From assembly GCA_019115125.1 (NCBI GenBank), contig DXEG01000064.1, positions 1 through 64,000 on the forward strand: a DNA stretch of 64,000 bases, read 5' to 3'. Of the stretch, positions 30,120-39,310 are shown one piece after another; position 1 is the first letter of the stretch, and every line of letters starts with the position of its first letter. The stretch is from Candidatus Blautia faecipullorum. GTDB lineage: Bacteria; Bacillota; Clostridia; Lachnospirales; Lachnospiraceae. Both the position numbers and the translations under genes were made by a program. The notes under the pieces were generated by a model. The model saw only the letters and a list, made by a program, of their open reading frames with translations. It was not told the DNA's origin and did not search any database.

Positions 30120-30167
30120 ATAAAGTGTCATGAAATACTATAAAACAAAAGAAATGGAGTGAGTGCC

Positions 30168-30533
30168 ATGACAAAGTATATTGATAATGTGAACGCGTAT
30201 CTGTCACAAATGAAAATCAAACAGACTTATATAAGTTTAAAGACCGGGATAGATAAAAATAAGTTATCACGTATTTTGACTGGTACACAGGATGTGAGCG
30301 CTACAGATATGGAAAAGATTGCGGATGCATTGGGAAAGAAGATGGAATTCTTTTTAAACGACGCGTTTCGTGTTCCGCGGATCATAGATTTTGAACCCGA
30401 GAAAATATCTTTTTATGCAGGCGAGCCAACCGAAAAACAGGAAGAAACAGCAAATAAACTGCTGCGTTTAATGGAAAATATTGATGAAGTTATGAGCGCT
30501 AAATACCGGTTTTTGAATATTTCGGAGGAATAA
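30168..30533 (+). CDS. Xre-family HTH transcriptional regulator, antitoxin-like
   Basis: A 121-residue DNA-binding protein. The N-terminal helix-turn-helix runs over residues 15-60, with KQTYISLKTGIDKNKLSRIL as the recognition unit and a following DMEKIADALGKKMEFFL. The C-terminal half has no named domain. ATG 30168 is behind GGAGTGA; a GTG at 30159 is also in frame but would leave no site. It is followed after 3 bases by an ImmA/IrrE gene, a common pairing in which the peptidase cleaves or modulates the Xre partner. AT-rich compared with its surroundings. Confidence 0.85.
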   Translation: MTKYIDNVNAYLSQMKIKQTYISLKTGIDKNKLSRILTGTQDVSATDMEKIADALGKKMEFFLNDAFRVPRIIDFEPEKISFYAGEPTEKQEETANKLLRLMENIDEVMSAKYRFLNISEE

Positions 30534-30536
30534 TCC

Positions 30537-31340
30537 ATGAATATTGAACGCTTAAGGAAGATTATTCAATATAGTACGGTCAATCGAAAAGAGATAGAAT
30601 CTAAAGTGAAGAGATTTTACTCATTCACTGGAATCGGCAATGATCAGGATGTTCTTAATATTTTGCAGATTGTACGGCCTGCTTTTCAGAAGAAGGGTTT
30701 TTTGGTGATTGAGCTTCCTTTTGCAGATGATGAAATAGGCGCGCTTTGTTATAAGGGAGATGCGTTAGGATATATTTTAATTAATACTTCTTTGCCGAAA
30801 GCAAACGCAAATTTCGCGGTTTGTCATGAAATATATCATGTGTTTTTTCAAGACGGCGAATTCAAATCTAAGGTAGAATTTGCAAATGATCACTATTTTG
30901 AACATGAAGAGGAATTTGCGGCAAATTTATTTGCAGGGATGCTGTTGATGCCGGAAGCGGGTTTCCGCCAAATGTATGGTTTATTCAAAAAGGAGTCGGA
31001 GGGAGACGAACGGGATACGATAATACGATTAATGAATTATTATCAGGTACCATACATGGCAGTGCTGATTCGCTGCTATGAACTCGGCCTGCCGGATTCA
31101 AATACCATATCCGAAGAGCTTTTGAATGTTGACGGGGCATCCGTCAGAGAGCGGTTTACTGAGCTTTGGCTGGATATGTCTATTCTCAGCGCTTCTGAAA
31201 AGGATGATTTCCCTCTTCTGGAAGCACTTGTGGAGCGTTATGGAAAAGAATGTATCCAGGATTCTTATCTGAATGAAAGAACTTTAAAACAGGTGATGCA
31301 AAATATGCGAACCCTCTATTCTGAGATAAAGGGGGACTAG
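30537..31340 (+). CDS. ImmA/IrrE-family zinc metallopeptidase
   Basis: A 267-residue protein with the HExxH motif VCHEIYHVFF (His97, Glu98, His101) and the downstream helix EEEFAANLFAGMLLMP that supplies the third ligand. This is the COG2856 arrangement seen in ImmA and IrrE, which cleave Xre-type repressors. The N-terminal 90 residues and C-terminal 110 residues are helical with no named domain. GGAGG lies before the ATG. It is the central gene of a three-gene unit between an Xre regulator and a PIN-like nuclease. Confidence 0.88.
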   Translation: MNIERLRKIIQYSTVNRKEIESKVKRFYSFTGIGNDQDVLNILQIVRPAFQKKGFLVIELPFADDEIGALCYKGDALGYILINTSLPKANANFAVCHEIYHVFFQDGEFKSKVEFANDHYFEHEEEFAANLFAGMLLMPEAGFRQMYGLFKKESEGDERDTIIRLMNYYQVPYMAVLIRCYELGLPDSNTISEELLNVDGASVRERFTELWLDMSILSASEKDDFPLLEALVERYGKECIQDSYLNERTLKQVMQNMRTLYSEIKGD

Positions 31341-32483: not shown

Positions 32484-34583
32484 ATGAGACAGGAATGGGA
32501 TTCATTTAGAGGGGGCGTTTGGGAAAAAGAAATCAATGTCCGTGATTTCATCCAGAAAAACTACACACCTTATGACGGAGACGAGTCTTTTCTGGCAGGC
32601 CCCACAGAGACCACAAAAGAATTATGGGCGCAGGTAATGGAGCTTACTGAGGAAGAACGCAAAAAAGGCGGCGTTCTCGATATGGATACTCATATCATTT
32701 CTACAATTACCTCCCATGGTCCGGGATACCTGAATAAGGATAAGGAAAAAATCGTGGGATTCCAGACGGATAAGCCCTTTAAGCGCGCTCTGCAGCCCAA
32801 CGGCGGTATCCGCATGGCGATCAAGGCCTGCGAGGATAACGGCTACCATGTGGATCCGGAGATCGTAGAGTTTTACACAAAATACCGCAAAACACACAAT
32901 GACGGCGTATTTGACGCTTATTCCCCGGAAATGCGCGCCTGCCGTTCCAGCCATATTATCACAGGACTTCCGGACGCCTATGGCCGCGGACGAATCATCG
33001 GCGACTACAGACGTGTGGCTCTTTACGGTATAGACCGGCTGATCGAGGACAAAGAAGAGCAGAAGGCCGGAACGCGAAGCAACATGTATGAGGACGTGAT
33101 CCGCAACCGCGAGGAGCTGTCCGAACAGATCAAAGCCCTCAAAGAGCTGAAGCAGCTCGGCACAATCTACGGCTATGATATTTCCAAACCGGCTGCTAAC
33201 GTGCAGGAAGCGATCCAGTGGCTGTATTTCGGATATCTGGCGGCAATCAAGGAACAGAACGGCGCGGCGATGTCCCTTGGACGTACCTCTACCTTCCTTG
33301 ATATTTATGCAGAAAGAGATCTGAAGAACGGAACCTTCACAGAGGAGGAGATCCAGGAATTTATTGATCACTTTATCATGAAGCTGCGTCTGGTTAAATT
33401 TGCCAGAACGCCTGAATACAACGCGCTGTTCTCCGGTGATCCTACCTGGGTCACGGAGTCCATCGGCGGTATGGGAATCGACGGAAGAAGCATGGTAACA
33501 AAAATGTCCTACCGTTACCTCCACACACTGGAGAATCTGGGACCGGCTCCGGAGCCGAACCTGACGGTTCTCTGGTCCACCAGACTTCCGCAGAACTTTA
33601 AGCGTTTCTGCGCGAAGACCTCCATTGCTTCCTCCTCTATTCAGTATGAGAACGACGATCTGATGAGAGTGACTCACGGAGACGATTACGCTATCGCGTG
33701 CTGTGTGTCCTCCATGAGAGTAGGTAAGGAGATGCAGTTCTTCGGAGCCCGCGCCAACCTTGCCAAATGCCTTCTTTACGCGATCAACGGCGGTGTAGAT
33801 GAGATCACCAAGAAGCAGGTGGGACCGAAATACCGTCCGATCACCTCGGAATATCTTGATTACGACGAGGTTATGGATCGTTACAACGATATGAGCCGCT
33901 GGCTGTCCCATGTATATGTAAACGCGCTGAACATCATTCACTATATGCATGACAAATACTGCTACGAGCGAGTTCAGATGGCTCTTCACGATAAGAATGT
34001 TACAAGATGGTTCGCTACAGGTATTGCGGGACTTTCTGTAATCACAGACTCCCTTTCCGCGATCAAATACGCCAAGGTAAAGACAATCCGTGACGAGAAC
34101 GGCATTGTTGTGGACTTTGAGGTTGAGGGAGATTACCCGAAATTCGGAAATGACGATGACCGTGTAGATGAGATCGCTTATAAGATCGTAAAAGATTTCA
34201 TGCATTATGTCGGAACCACCCAGACCTACCGCGGAGGAATCCCGACTACATCCATTCTGACGATCACTTCAAACGTAGTGTATGGAAAGAATACAGGAGC
34301 GACGCCGGACGGACGTAAGGCAGGCCAGCCCTTCGCGCCGGGAGCAAACCCCATGCACGGAAGAGACAGCCACGGCGCGGTAGCCTCTCTGAGCTCTGTT
34401 GCCAAGCTTCCGTTCAAAGAGTGCCAGGATGGTATTTCCAATACCTTCTCGATCATTCCGGGGGCGCTGGGAAAAGAGGATATGGTAATGTTGGATTCCA
34501 TCAGTCTGGATGATCTGAGCTTCTCCATGGAACCGGACTGCGCATGCTGTGAGCCGAATCTGACGGTTGAGGACGATATGTAA
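32484..34583 (+). CDS. pflB: Pyruvate formate-lyase catalytic chain lacking its glycyl-radical domain
   Basis: Converts pyruvate and CoA to acetyl-CoA and formate. The 699-residue chain follows PFL from [19 protein letters not shown] to GPGYLNKD, the active-site pair in [14 protein letters not shown] (Cys406-Cys407), and [18 protein letters not shown]. It stops shortly after [11 protein letters not shown]. The C-terminal domain with the radical glycine (RVSGYA) that complete PFLs of about 740-760 residues carry is missing. It is replaced by a tail of about 30 residues ending [14 protein letters not shown]. The missing domain is encoded separately at 34840. The chain cannot act without a partner carrying the radical (family knowledge). 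ATG 32484 is behind AAGGAGG. Confidence 0.95.
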
Positions 34584-34608
34584 GACGGCGGCCGAGGGTA
34601 GAAATCTG

Positions 34609-34631
34609 TTTATCCTGGTTTTGAGGATAAA
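34609..34631 (+). other. Stem-loop after pflB
   Basis: TTTATCCT and AGGATAAA form a perfect 8-bp stem with a 7-base loop. No T-run follows, so it may stabilise the pflB message or attenuate read-through to grcA rather than terminate fully. Confidence 0.5.
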
Positions 34632-34754
34632 AGTGTGTAACCCGGAGTTTGTGAAGTGATAAATTAAGAAATCCAGAGCCGGCAGAGGAAAAGTTAAGAA
34701 CCCTGGAGCTTGTGAAGGAAAAAGATAAGAAATCCAAAGTCTGTGGGAGAAAGT
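34632..34754 (+). repeat. About four diverged tandem copies of a 30-31 base unit between pflB and grcA
   Basis: Units start near 34634, 34664, 34694 and 34725. The pattern is TTAAGAAATCCAGAG, then CTTGTGAAGG and AAAAG, with substitutions in each copy. The phase is 30 or 31 bases. No open reading frame in the direction of the operon uses it. Confidence 0.7.
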
Positions 34755-34794
34755 GCCATGCTTTGGAACAGTAAATAAAAAACGCGGCATAAAA

Positions 34795-34822
34795 TTGCAC
34801 TTGTATCACAAAAACATAATAT
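34795..34822 (+). promoter_or_regulatory. Candidate separate promoter of grcA
   Basis: TTGCAC (34795-34800), a 16-base spacer and TAATAT (34817-34822), directly before the AGGAGG of grcA. If real, the radical subunit can be made independently of pflB. Confidence 0.5.
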
Positions 34823-34839
34823 ATAGGAGGAATTACAAT

Positions 34840-35082
34840 ATGAATATCAGCGACGCACAGGTTGACAACCTGGTAAACTTACTGGATGGATACGCGGAAA
34901 AAGGCGGCCATCATCTGAACGTAAATGTATTTACCCGTGAAACGCTTCTGGATGCGCAGGCACATCCGGAGAAATATCCTCAGCTTACTGTTCGTGTGTC
35001 CGGCTACGCGGTAAACTTTAATAAGCTGACCAAGGAACAGCAGGACGAGGTTATTTCCAGAACCTTCCACGAAGGAATGTAA
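34840..35082 (+). CDS. grcA: Autonomous glycyl-radical subunit of pyruvate formate-lyase (GrcA-like)
   Basis: An 80-residue protein that corresponds to the C-terminal domain of [23 protein letters not shown] matches the linker and strand before the radical loop. It continues through [16 protein letters not shown], then RVSGYAVNF with the radical glycine at residue 55, and ends RTFHEGM as PFLs do. In E. coli the spare part GrcA (YfiD) replaces the oxygen-damaged end of an intact PFL. Here the neighbouring PflB has no such domain, so this chain looks like an obligate second subunit (inference). ATG 34840 is behind AGGAGG at 9 bases; pflA starts 3 bases after its stop. Confidence 0.93.
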
Positions 35083-35085
35083 GAT

Positions 35086-35847
35086 ATGCCGGATGAATAT
35101 AACCTGAAGGGACGTATTCATTCTACAGAGAGCTTCGGGACCGTTGACGGTCCCGGAGTTCGTTTTGTTGTATTTTTTCAGGGGTGTCCTATGCGGTGCC
35201 TGTACTGTCACAATCCGGATACTTGGACCTCGGGAGAGGGAAAAGAAATGACGGCGGAGGAGCTACTGAAGGAATACAAAAGAAATGAGGTTTTTTATAG
35301 ATCCGGCGGGATTACCGCCACCGGCGGAGAGCCTCTGATGCAGCTTCCCTTCCTTACGGAATTGTTTGCGGCGGCAAAAAAAGAAAGCATCCACACCTGT
35401 CTGGATACGTCAGGGATCATGTACCGCGCGGAAAAACAGCAGGAATATGAAAAGCTGTTTCAGGTACTTGACCTTGTGCTTCTGGATTTTAAGCACAGCA
35501 GTGAAGAAGAGCATAAGAAGCTGACTGCCCAGAGTCAGAGGCACATTCTGGAATTTGCCGGGGCGCTGGAAAAGGCGGGGATACCTATGGTGGTCCGCCA
35601 TGTGGTGGTTCCGGGGATCACAGATTCCCCGGAGCATCTGACGCGGTTGGGAAGACTGATCGGAAAATTCCGGAACCTGAAGGGGCTGGAGGTGCTTCCC
35701 TATCATACCATGGGAGCGGTGAAGTATAAAAATCTCGGGATGGAATATCCGCTGGAAGGGCTGGAGAATCTCAAGCCTGAAAAAGCAAAAGAAGCGAGGG
35801 CATTGATCCTGGAGGGAATACGCCAGGTGAGAACAGCAGGAAAATAA
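35086..35847 (+). CDS. pflA: Pyruvate formate-lyase activating enzyme (radical SAM)
   Basis: Uses S-adenosylmethionine and a 4Fe-4S cluster to abstract hydrogen from the radical glycine of PFL. The 253-residue protein carries ESFGTVDGPGVRFVVF and the cluster motif CPMRCLYC (CxxxCxxC) near residue 30, then GGEPLMQ for SAM binding. The size fits the simple PFL-type activase without extra ferredoxin domain. Here its target glycine lies in the separate grcA product encoded immediately upstream, and the 3-base spacing suggests coupled production of the two. Confidence 0.96.
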   Translation: MPDEYNLKGRIHSTESFGTVDGPGVRFVVFFQGCPMRCLYCHNPDTWTSGEGKEMTAEELLKEYKRNEVFYRSGGITATGGEPLMQLPFLTELFAAAKKESIHTCLDTSGIMYRAEKQQEYEKLFQVLDLVLLDFKHSSEEEHKKLTAQSQRHILEFAGALEKAGIPMVVRHVVVPGITDSPEHLTRLGRLIGKFRNLKGLEVLPYHTMGAVKYKNLGMEYPLEGLENLKPEKAKEARALILEGIRQVRTAGK

Positions 35848-38341: not shown

Positions 38342-39310
38342 ATGGATGTATCAAACGTTACAATCGCACAGCTCTGCAGTGAATGGCTGAACATGAAAAA
38401 GCTTTCGGTGAAACAGTCCACACATGCAAAGTACTATTCCATCGCGCAGAAACATATCCTGCCGGAATTGGGGGAGATTCCGCTGGTGCAGATAAACTCT
38501 GCTGTGATCAATGATTTTGCCGCCAGAAAACTGAATGCCGGTCAGACAGATACGGCGGAAGGAGAAGAAAAGCAGGAGTCCATGAATCCGAAAACGGTCA
38601 GAGATATCTGCACGATCCTGAAATCGGTGATACGCTATGGAGAAAAAGAATATCATCTGAATTCGCTGGTGGAAAATACAGTGCTTCCAAAAGTAAAGAC
38701 TGCCAGCAAGGAGGTTCTCACAGCCAGGGAGCTGAAAAAAATAGAGCAGTATCTCTGGCAGAATCAGGAGACGCTCCGCTGTACCGGGCTTCTGGTATGC
38801 ATGTACACAGGAATGCGGCTTGGAGAAATATGCGCGCTGAAATGGGACGACATAGATCTGCGGCGCCATATCTTACATATCAATCATACAATACAGAGGA
38901 TTAAGCTGCCTGGAGAACAGGGAATGCATAAGACGCAGCTGATCCTGGATCAGCCCAAGACAGTATCTTCGGAACGTATTATTCCAATTCCGAATACCGT
39001 CTATCCGCTGATAAAGAATCTGTCCGCGGGATCCAGAAGGGAGTGTTATTTTCTTACAAATTCCGAACATCTGATAGAGCCCAGGAACTACCAGTATTTT
39101 TTTAAAAGACTATTGGAGACTCTGGGAATACGGAACGTGAATTTTCATATTCTGAGACATACGTTCGCTTCAAGATGTGTGGAGACCGGAATGGATATCA
39201 AGACGCTGAGCGAGATACTGGGACATGCAAATACAAGCATTACTTTAAACTATTACGTCCATTCTTCACTGGACTCAAAGAAAAAACAAATAAACCGATT
39301 GAAATATTAA
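38342..39310 (+). CDS. Tyrosine recombinase / phage-type integrase
   Basis: Site-specific recombinase of 322 residues. The N-terminal SAM-like core-binding domain (about 1-120) is followed by the catalytic domain with Arg in TGMRLGEICALKW, Lys in DQPKTVSSERI, HILRHTFASR (His-x-x-Arg), LGHAN and the nucleophile Tyr in TLNYYVHSS. All active-site residues are present, so it is probably functional. AAAGGAG precedes the ATG. No excisionase, tRNA or att repeat was recognised nearby, so the extent of any element it mobilises is unclear. The decayed island upstream is a candidate cargo. Confidence 0.92.
   Translation: MDVSNVTIAQLCSEWLNMKKLSVKQSTHAKYYSIAQKHILPELGEIPLVQINSAVINDFAARKLNAGQTDTAEGEEKQESMNPKTVRDICTILKSVIRYGEKEYHLNSLVENTVLPKVKTASKEVLTARELKKIEQYLWQNQETLRCTGLLVCMYTGMRLGEICALKWDDIDLRRHILHINHTIQRIKLPGEQGMHKTQLILDQPKTVSSERIIPIPNTVYPLIKNLSAGSRRECYFLTNSEHLIEPRNYQYFFKRLLETLGIRNVNFHILRHTFASRCVETGMDIKTLSEILGHANTSITLNYYVHSSLDSKKKQINRLKY

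What the first reader, a model, noticed from the sequence alone, without database searches (positions are those of the whole stretch)
32484..35847. Pyruvate formate-lyase encoded as two chains: PflB without its glycyl-radical domain plus a GrcA-like subunit, next to pflA
Seen: PflB ends at 699 residues just after GALGKED, before the region that holds RVSGYA in complete PFLs. The next gene encodes exactly that region (80 residues, radical Gly55), and pflA follows 3 bases later. Known: E. coli GrcA is a spare part for an intact PFL. Inference: here the radical domain looks obligate and exchangeable, so an oxygen-cleaved radical subunit could be replaced without rebuilding the 78 kDa chain. I do not know whether this arrangement has been described.
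Basis: partly seen in the sequence, partly recalled or inferred. Interest (0 to 1): 0.85.

Follow-up and report, generated by a model that had tools for sequence, protein, structure and literature searches.

The report
Two-piece pyruvate formate-lyase with cysteine tail
In this bacterium and many relatives a central fermentation enzyme is made as two separate proteins, one of them a small replaceable part that carries the oxygen-sensitive radical, and an overlooked cysteine-rich piece goes with the pair, which suggests a built-in way to cope with oxygen.

Summary
The split is real. pflB (32484-34583, 699 aa) stops before the radical loop, grcA (34840-35082, 80 aa, Gly55) supplies it, pflA follows. 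It is no frameshift: 79 of 80 named relatives have a truncated pflB upstream of grcA (the 80th is at a contig end). It is obligate: the window's genome has no full-length PFL, nor do 58 of 61 family genomes with truncated PflB. The data fit one origin, with at least one re-fusion.

New here: PflB does not end at GALGKED; 33 further residues carry Cys686/688/689. Of 79 relatives, 51 have a tail with 2-3 Cys. Of the other 28, 27 encode a third, unannotated protein (56-89 aa) between pflB and grcA: its N-half resembles GrcA's docking part without the radical glycine, its C-half is the same kind of Cys motif. In a family sample it was found only with GrcA3 (65 of 65). Twenty genomes keep an extra, unlinked grcA.

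I infer a heteromeric PFL with an exchangeable radical subunit and a Cys module acting at the docking site. The module's role (redox-gated placeholder, radical quencher or metal site) is untested. NCBI already names GrcA3; two split-clade large subunits are in the PDB.

The parts
32484..34583 (+). pflB: catalytic subunit of pyruvate formate-lyase, 699 aa, without the radical loop; catalytic pair Cys406-Cys407
   Evidence: TIGR01255 1122.9 bits over 2-669/744; PF02901; C406 and C407 invariant in 75 aligned split PflBs
34482..34580 (+). C-terminal tail of PflB, residues 667-699, absent from E. coli PFL
   Evidence: E. coli PFL aligns only up to residue 672; tails compared; unordered in the AF2 model of PflB alone (residues 649-699 under pLDDT 50)
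34536..34562 (+). Cys module of the tail (residues 685-693, Cys686/688/689)
   Evidence: 51 of 79 split loci have 2-3 Cys in the tail; a profile of the cap's C-half scores 29 of 51 such tails above the 99th percentile of shuffles. The tails nearest to the window's (L083, L084) score 8.2 bits: above that line (4.2) but below the best of 1020 shuffles (9.7)
34584..34839 (+). pflB-grcA intergenic stretch, 256 nt, with an imperfect 51-nt direct repeat (34641-34691, 34702-34752, 73%); no cap gene here
   Evidence: own-genome search with the cap profile finds only the GrcA N-terminus; close relative L083 has only 42 nt
34840..35082 (+). grcA (GrcA3 type): radical subunit, 80 aa, radical Gly55 in RVSGYA; preceded by AGGAGG
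   Evidence: NF038360 171.4 bits, cut-off 158; residues 7-80 aligned to E. coli PFL 681-759; AGGAGG
35086..35847 (+). pflA: radical-SAM activase
   Evidence: TIGR02493 288.5 bits, cut-off 231.75; CPMRCLYC (CX3CX2C) in the translation

Best explanation
This is an obligate two-chain pyruvate formate-lyase. PflB supplies the barrel and the catalytic cysteine pair. GrcA supplies the last helix, the tenth barrel strand and the glycyl-radical loop, docks into the open end of PflB and is activated by PflA (co-occurrence, order and fit are shown; binding and catalysis are inferred). Because the radical sits on an 80-residue chain made separately, an oxygen-cut radical subunit can be discarded and replaced without rebuilding PflB (inferred). 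A conserved Cys module is the third element. It is on the PflB tail here and in 51 of 79 relatives; in 27 of 79 it sits on a separate small protein ('cap') that also carries a relative of GrcA's docking helix and strand but no radical loop. I think it most likely acts at the GrcA docking site, either as a redox-gated placeholder or as a thiol partner of the radical (inferred, about 0.4).
For: Complementarity of the two chains. Truncated pflB upstream in 79 of 80 named loci; RVSGYA in 80 of 80 GrcAs and RVSGY in 0 of 79 PflBs. No full-length PFL in the window's genome nor in 58 of 61 family genomes with truncated PflB. In a 58-row tree split PflBs plus five full-length ones are separated from 25 other full-length PFLs by a branch with SH-aLRT 99; one of the five (L164, same gene as L182) still contains a Cys tail and the GrcA N-terminus in its single frame. 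Extra unlinked grcA in 20 genomes. Cap: dN/dS 0.01-0.19 in nine pairs, N-half like GrcA (hhalign 95.7%, E 8.9e-9), in a 250-genome family sample found only with GrcA3 (65 of 65), also in three genomes where it is unlinked.
Against: No biochemical evidence. In E. coli, tPFL (1-695) with YfiD shows no binding by ITC and 32-fold less radical (PMC8683613, passages), so docking of such pieces is not automatic. Both AF2 models are middling (mean pLDDT 76.4 and 75.0) and the tail is unordered in both. The Cys rule has exceptions: L110 has neither a Cys tail nor a cap, L292 and L293 have a single Cys and no cap in the locus, and G297 has a single Cys in the tail besides an unlinked cap. 22 of 51 Cys tails do not pass the 99th percentile of shuffles with the cap's Cys profile. 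Three split genomes in the family sample and three in the genus also have a full-length PFL. 11 of 80 named loci show no pflA in the stretch held.
Confidence: 0.88

Rival explanations
1. GrcA is a spare part, as E. coli YfiD is, for an intact PFL elsewhere, and this pflB is a decayed copy.
For: NCBIfam names the family 'autonomous glycyl radical cofactor GrcA3'; extra free-standing grcA copies exist; 3 of 16 genus genomes with GrcA3 also have a full-length PFL.
Against: No full-length PFL in the window's genome nor in 58 of 61 family genomes with truncated PflB; truncated PflB keeps its catalytic residues; GrcA has no YfiD-like N-terminal extension (YfiD aligns only from GrcA residue 20).
Confidence: 0.03
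2. Assembly error or recent frameshift.
For: None found.
Against: Same arrangement in independent genomes named as Lachnospiraceae, Oscillospiraceae, Erysipelotrichaceae and Coriobacteriia, with separate starts and tails.
Confidence: 0.01
3. The split enzyme is as described, but the Cys module is a metal or iron-sulphur accessory element like the small subunits of benzylsuccinate synthase, not a placeholder or thiol switch.
For: [quoted passage not shown] the cap is of that size and Cys-bearing.
Against: Usually only 2-3 Cys with variable spacing (CxC, CC, CxxC, Cx4-6C), where one chain would need four ligands for a cluster; the cap's N-half is related to GrcA.
Confidence: 0.2
4. The Cys module is a built-in deactivase: its thiols quench the glycyl radical before oxygen can cut the chain.
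For: The Cys residues sit on a tail that is unordered in the model, next to the docking site, or on a protein with a GrcA-like half.
Against: No functional evidence; the distance of the Cys pair from the docking strand varies between caps.
Confidence: 0.25

Closest known systems
E. coli PFL (PflB, PDB 1h16/2pfl)
   Same: Same family and catalytic cysteine pair; its parts are all there when PflB and GrcA are added up
   Different: One chain of 759 residues; no Cys tail
E. coli GrcA/YfiD (6owr) and the T4 spare part
   Same: Free-standing radical domain
   Different: YfiD repairs oxygen-cut full-length PFL and has a disordered 60-residue N-terminus (PMC8683613, passages); GrcA3 is the only PFL radical source here and instead carries the PFL segment ahead of strand 10
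NCBIfam NF038360 GrcA3
   Same: The window protein is a member (171.4 bits, cut-off 158)
   Different: The name says 'autonomous cofactor'; whether the curators note the split is unknown to me (the model's comment text was not seen)
PDB 38lb and 38la, 'Formate acetyltransferase'
   Same: Both chains fall in the split clade, 38lb beside Olsenella-type PflBs; neither is listed in the GrcA search, so neither carries the radical domain
   Different: No GrcA3 chain was found in the PDB (best hit E. coli PFL, 88.6 bits); the last 43 residues of 38lb were not seen; no paper seen
Accessory subunits of BSS and HPAD
   Same: Small Cys-bearing partners of a glycyl-radical enzyme
   Different: No match of the cap to them; the cap's N-half is GrcA-like

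Membership tests
Pyruvate formate-lyase (TIGR01255) | Model score above cut-off | tested here: met
   1122.9 vs 994.2 bits
Pyruvate formate-lyase (TIGR01255) | Catalytic Cys-Cys pair | tested here: met
   C406-C407, invariant in 75 sequences
Pyruvate formate-lyase (TIGR01255) | Glycyl-radical loop RVSGYA in the same chain | tested here: not met
   It is on the 80-aa GrcA; met only for the pair of chains
Pyruvate formate-lyase (TIGR01255) | Cognate activase | tested here: met
   TIGR02493 288.5 bits, 3 bases downstream of grcA
Pyruvate formate-lyase (TIGR01255) | Pyruvate + CoA to acetyl-CoA + formate | not testable with these tools
   -
Autonomous glycyl radical cofactor GrcA3 (NF038360) | Model score above cut-off | tested here: met
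   171.4 vs 158 bits
Spare-part GrcA/YfiD | Serves an intact PFL in the same cell | tested here: not met
   No full-length PFL found in the genome
Spare-part GrcA/YfiD | N-terminal extension of about 60 residues | tested here: not met
   80 aa in all; YfiD residues 67-126 align from GrcA residue 20 on
BSS/HPAD-type Fe-S accessory subunit (for the cap) | Four conserved Cys ligands for a [4Fe-4S] cluster in one chain | tested here: not met
   Only 2 Cys columns are conserved (one invariant, one at 90% or more) in 25 caps
BSS/HPAD-type Fe-S accessory subunit (for the cap) | Metal content | not testable with these tools
   -

The most novel reading that the evidence does not exclude
Split PFL is a swap-in, swap-out enzyme with two rival occupants for one socket: the radical subunit GrcA, and a radical-less mimic carrying a redox-active cysteine pair (a separate cap protein, or its Cys half on the PflB tail as here). 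Under oxygen the cell parks PflB with the Cys module and later restores it with fresh GrcA, so the catalytic body outlives its radical.
Probability: 0.35. Interest if true: 0.9.

Novelty: new variant of a known kind. Interest (0 to 1): 0.82.

Why it matters
PFL makes formate and acetyl-CoA in many anaerobes, and oxygen destroys it by cutting the chain at the radical glycine. A 2025 paper says that most glycyl-radical enzymes, PFL included, are homodimers of a single polypeptide, and that accessory subunits of others may still be unannotated (PMC12590467, passage). Here 130 of 396 sampled genomes of the family pass the GrcA3 cut-off (at least 2 of these, G142 and G272, are single-chain frames), so a natural two-chain PFL is common, and a Cys module travels with it. 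That makes the radical domain separately titratable: docking, activation and oxygen repair of a glycyl-radical enzyme become directly testable. Annotation that expects a whole PFL, or reads GrcA as a spare part, could misjudge formate production in these genomes (inference).

Tried and rejected
Spare part for an intact PFL: rejected. Frameshift or assembly error: rejected. Reading the long pflB-grcA gap of relatives as untranslated regulatory RNA: my simple scan saw no terminator-like site in any gap (0 of 28 and 0 of 51), and 27 of 28 proved to hold an ORF under purifying selection. An AF2 model of PflB alone was made to see whether the tail plugs the open barrel: the tail is unordered, so no answer. 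The read-through model of L083 PflB-GrcA matches E. coli PFL in Foldseek over 798 columns (TM 0.78/0.82, rmsd 6.3); weak support only, since one chain was folded. A PDB search with the cap gave only chance-like matches (best E 0.0089). My first motif search for the cap missed 11 of the 27 loci and a profile found them. Papers: ten searches gave zero hits for 'GrcA3' (14) and for split, two-component, two-subunit or truncated PFL as phrases (28), and no title listed in the other eight describes them. Most subscription journals are missing from the library, so this does not show that nothing is in print.
Full report
Observation. NCBIfam and Pfam divide one PFL between PflB and GrcA: TIGR01255 positions 2-669 and 663-744, Gly_radical 1-52 and 51-106. 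GrcA passes the cut-off of NF038360, GrcA3 (171.4 vs 158 bits). GrcA residues 7-80 align with E. coli PFL 681-759, while E. coli YfiD aligns only from GrcA residue 20 on. PflB runs 33 residues beyond GALGKED; these hold Cys686, Cys688 and Cys689.

Is it obligate? In the window's genome (3.5 Mb, 67 contigs, 97.3% complete) TIGR01255 finds only this PflB at E <= 1e-100. Of 64 genomes of the genus, 16 have GrcA3 over cut-off; all 16 have a truncated PflB and 3 of them (G003, G027, G034) also a full-length PFL. Of the other genomes of the genus, 16 have only full-length PFL, 2 (G004, G012) have contig-edge pieces that cannot be judged and 30 have no match at that threshold. In the family, 130 of 396 genomes pass the GrcA3 cut-off and 159 have a match at E <= 1e-38. 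I gave 70 of those 159 to a TIGR01255 search: 61 have a truncated PflB, 8 only a full-length PFL, 1 (G079) none; 3 of the 61 (G133, G165, G175) also have a full-length PFL. In the five of the eight that I looked at, the GrcA-like end is inside the PFL frame (L164, L176, L180, L181, L184). So 58 of 61 show only the split form. In a sample spread over the phylum 4 of 398 pass the GrcA3 cut-off, two of them the window's genome and G214 of its family. Of 47 of 149 phylum genomes with a PFL match, the window's is truncated, G482's is cut at position 539 and the others reach position 740 or more.

Named relatives. In 79 of 80 a truncated pflB lies upstream of grcA; L118 starts at a contig end. pflA lies within 400 nt downstream in 66 of 80, 1.4-1.7 kb away in 3 (L122, L136, L154), and is not seen in the stretch held in 11. 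RVSGYA is in 80 of 80 GrcAs and RVSGY in 0 of 79 PflBs; the catalytic ACCVS is in 78 of 79, the other (L146) being a fragment of 197 residues without that part.

Origin. On a tree of 183 PflB cores (123 split, 60 full-length) the label needs 3 changes against 50.8 in shuffles. In a reduced tree of 58 rows the 25 other full-length PFLs are one side of a branch with SH-aLRT 99, and 28 split plus five full-length ones are the other. One of the five (L182, same gene as L164) carries a Cys tail and the GrcA N-terminus inside its single frame, so it reads as a re-fusion; the other four are seamless. The support for their places inside the clade is modest: 83-93, 32-48 for the nearest forks of the larger tree. 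One split with later fusions is the simplest reading; two splits are not excluded. The clade includes both Bacillota and Coriobacteriia, which suggests transfer (inference).

The Cys module, a second finding. Of 79 named loci, 51 have 2 (30) or 3 (21) Cys in the PflB tail, none has 1; their pflB-grcA gap is -17 to 195 nt (median 41). The other 28 have no Cys and a gap of median 273 nt (Mann-Whitney p 9e-12; related loci are not independent). The window itself has a Cys tail and a gap of 256 nt, longer than in any of the 51. The start codon is uncertain in a few (for example L142, L145). dN/dS is 0.01-0.19 in nine pairs, rough because synonymous change is near saturation in most. About 30 residues of the cap's N-half are related to GrcA's N-terminus (hhalign 95.7%, E 8.9e-9; 19 of 25 caps hit GrcA3 far below its cut-off, best E 1.3e-6). 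The radical loop is missing. Its C-half has the form C-x(n)-C-x-x-P-[TN]; a profile of it scores 29 of 51 Cys tails above the 99th percentile of 1020 shuffles and 0 of the 28 Cys-less tails. The window's kind of tail (CACCEPN) is linked weakly: L083 and L084 8.2 bits, against 9.7 for the best shuffle; bridging tails are L160 (15.0) and L158 (13.3). Pfam has no family for the cap: 3 of 25 touch Gly_radical at E 0.0088 or worse.

Cap and GrcA3 go together. In 250 family genomes 65 have a cap at E <= 1e-9 and all 65 are in the GrcA3 list. Of 50 for which I compared places, 47 lie within 800 nt of a grcA; the others are G064, G173 and G297. In G064 and G173 the PflB tail has no Cys; in G297 it has one, just after GKD; in all three the cap stands away from pflB (the G173 cap scores only 40 bits). 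So the cap may act in trans. In G173 and G297 the gene order is pflB-pflA-grcA. Over the tree, Cys-on-PflB (70 rows) and Cys-on-cap (51 rows) interchange 12 times, at least 4 forced by starred branches; two rows of another family (L292, L293) have a single Cys and no cap in the locus. This looks like one function that can sit on either chain.

Extra radical subunits. 31 of the 159 family genomes have two or more GrcA3 matches. I fetched one or more copies from 22 of them, and from G260. In 19 loci (20 genes, L171 having two), and in L323, grcA has no pflB, pflA or cap in the stretch held; that is 20 genomes. Of the other three, G143 has two linked copies (one at a contig start), and from G360 and G380 I took only the linked copy. 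All 20 genes of the first set keep RVSGYA, and 17 compared pairs are 84-99% identical to the linked copy. Where the linked locus was fetched it is of the cap kind, 17 of 17 plus G260. Of the 20 loci, five lie beside a gene that looks like a Crp/Fnr-type regulator and six beside genes that look like spoIIIA (labels recalled from the sequences, not searched). This fits a replaceable part better than a fixed subunit.

Mechanism. Shown: two complementary chains, conserved order, no whole PFL in most carriers, a conserved Cys module on either of two carriers. Inferred: GrcA docks by its helix and strand as residues 681-759 of E. coli PFL do; PflA sets the radical on Gly55; used GrcA can be swapped. 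In E. coli, tPFL (1-695) and YfiD do not bind measurably by ITC and take up 32-fold less radical, though the complex is as active as wild type once activated (PMC8683613, passages). A natural split at about residue 680 therefore needs its own docking solution. GrcA3's extra N-terminal segment and the PflB tail are candidates.

Structure. AF2 of PflB alone leaves 649-699 unordered. A single-chain read-through of L083 gives PflB strand 652-657 and GrcA strand 739-744, with the tail unordered, and aligns with E. coli PFL over 798 columns. These are modest models. PDB chains 38lb and 38la fall in the split clade; no GrcA3 chain was found. They are not among the 50 best rows of the Foldseek searches, whose library ends in April 2026.

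Literature. Ten searches found no description of a split PFL, GrcA3 or the cap (listings). NF038360 shows that NCBI curators know GrcA3. Anas et al. 2025 (PMC12590467, passages) state that most GREs, PFL included, are composed of a single polypeptide and that accessory subunits in other GREs may be unannotated. The passages I saw on E. coli (PMC8683613) and Fusobacterium (PMC12288474) treat GrcA as a spare part for cut PFL. PMC11528403 (passages) uses 'split' only for spectra.

Verdict. The split and its obligate nature are well supported; the Cys module and the cap are new as far as these searches reach; their function is open.

Noticed in passing
L144:3711-3944 and 26 other named loci; G064, G173, G297 unlinked: Unannotated small 'cap' protein between pflB and grcA: GrcA-like N-half without the radical glycine, C-half with a conserved Cys pair.
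   Followed up: yes
L171, L174, L255, L257, L259, L260, L262, L263, L266, L268, L271, L273, L274, L277, L278, L281, L283, L285, L288, L323: Free-standing extra grcA copies away from pflB; five beside a Crp/Fnr-like gene and six beside spoIIIA-like genes (labels recalled).
   Followed up: partly
L164 (G142:C26), L163/L180/L181/L184: Full-length PFLs nested in the split clade; L164 retains a Cys tail and the GrcA N-terminus in one frame, which reads as a gene re-fusion.
   Followed up: partly
G000:C35:27373-42486 (L002-L004): Three further full-length glycyl-radical enzymes of the PFL-like family in the window's genome; substrate not determined.
   Followed up: no
window 34641-34752: Imperfect 51-nt direct repeat (61-nt spacing) in the pflB-grcA gap, which is 214 nt longer than in close relative L083.
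   Followed up: no
phage records MT838895, MT838692 and others: 1539 of 50,697 phage records hold a GrcA-like stretch, 1509 of them at 60-80% identity, most named for Escherichia, Salmonella and Klebsiella; two from human faeces are 76-80% identical over 94-100% of the query.
   Followed up: no
window 30159-31340 and 38342-39310: A small HTH gene followed by an ImmA/IrrE-like protein upstream, and a tyrosine-recombinase-like gene downstream (labels recalled from the translations).
   Followed up: no
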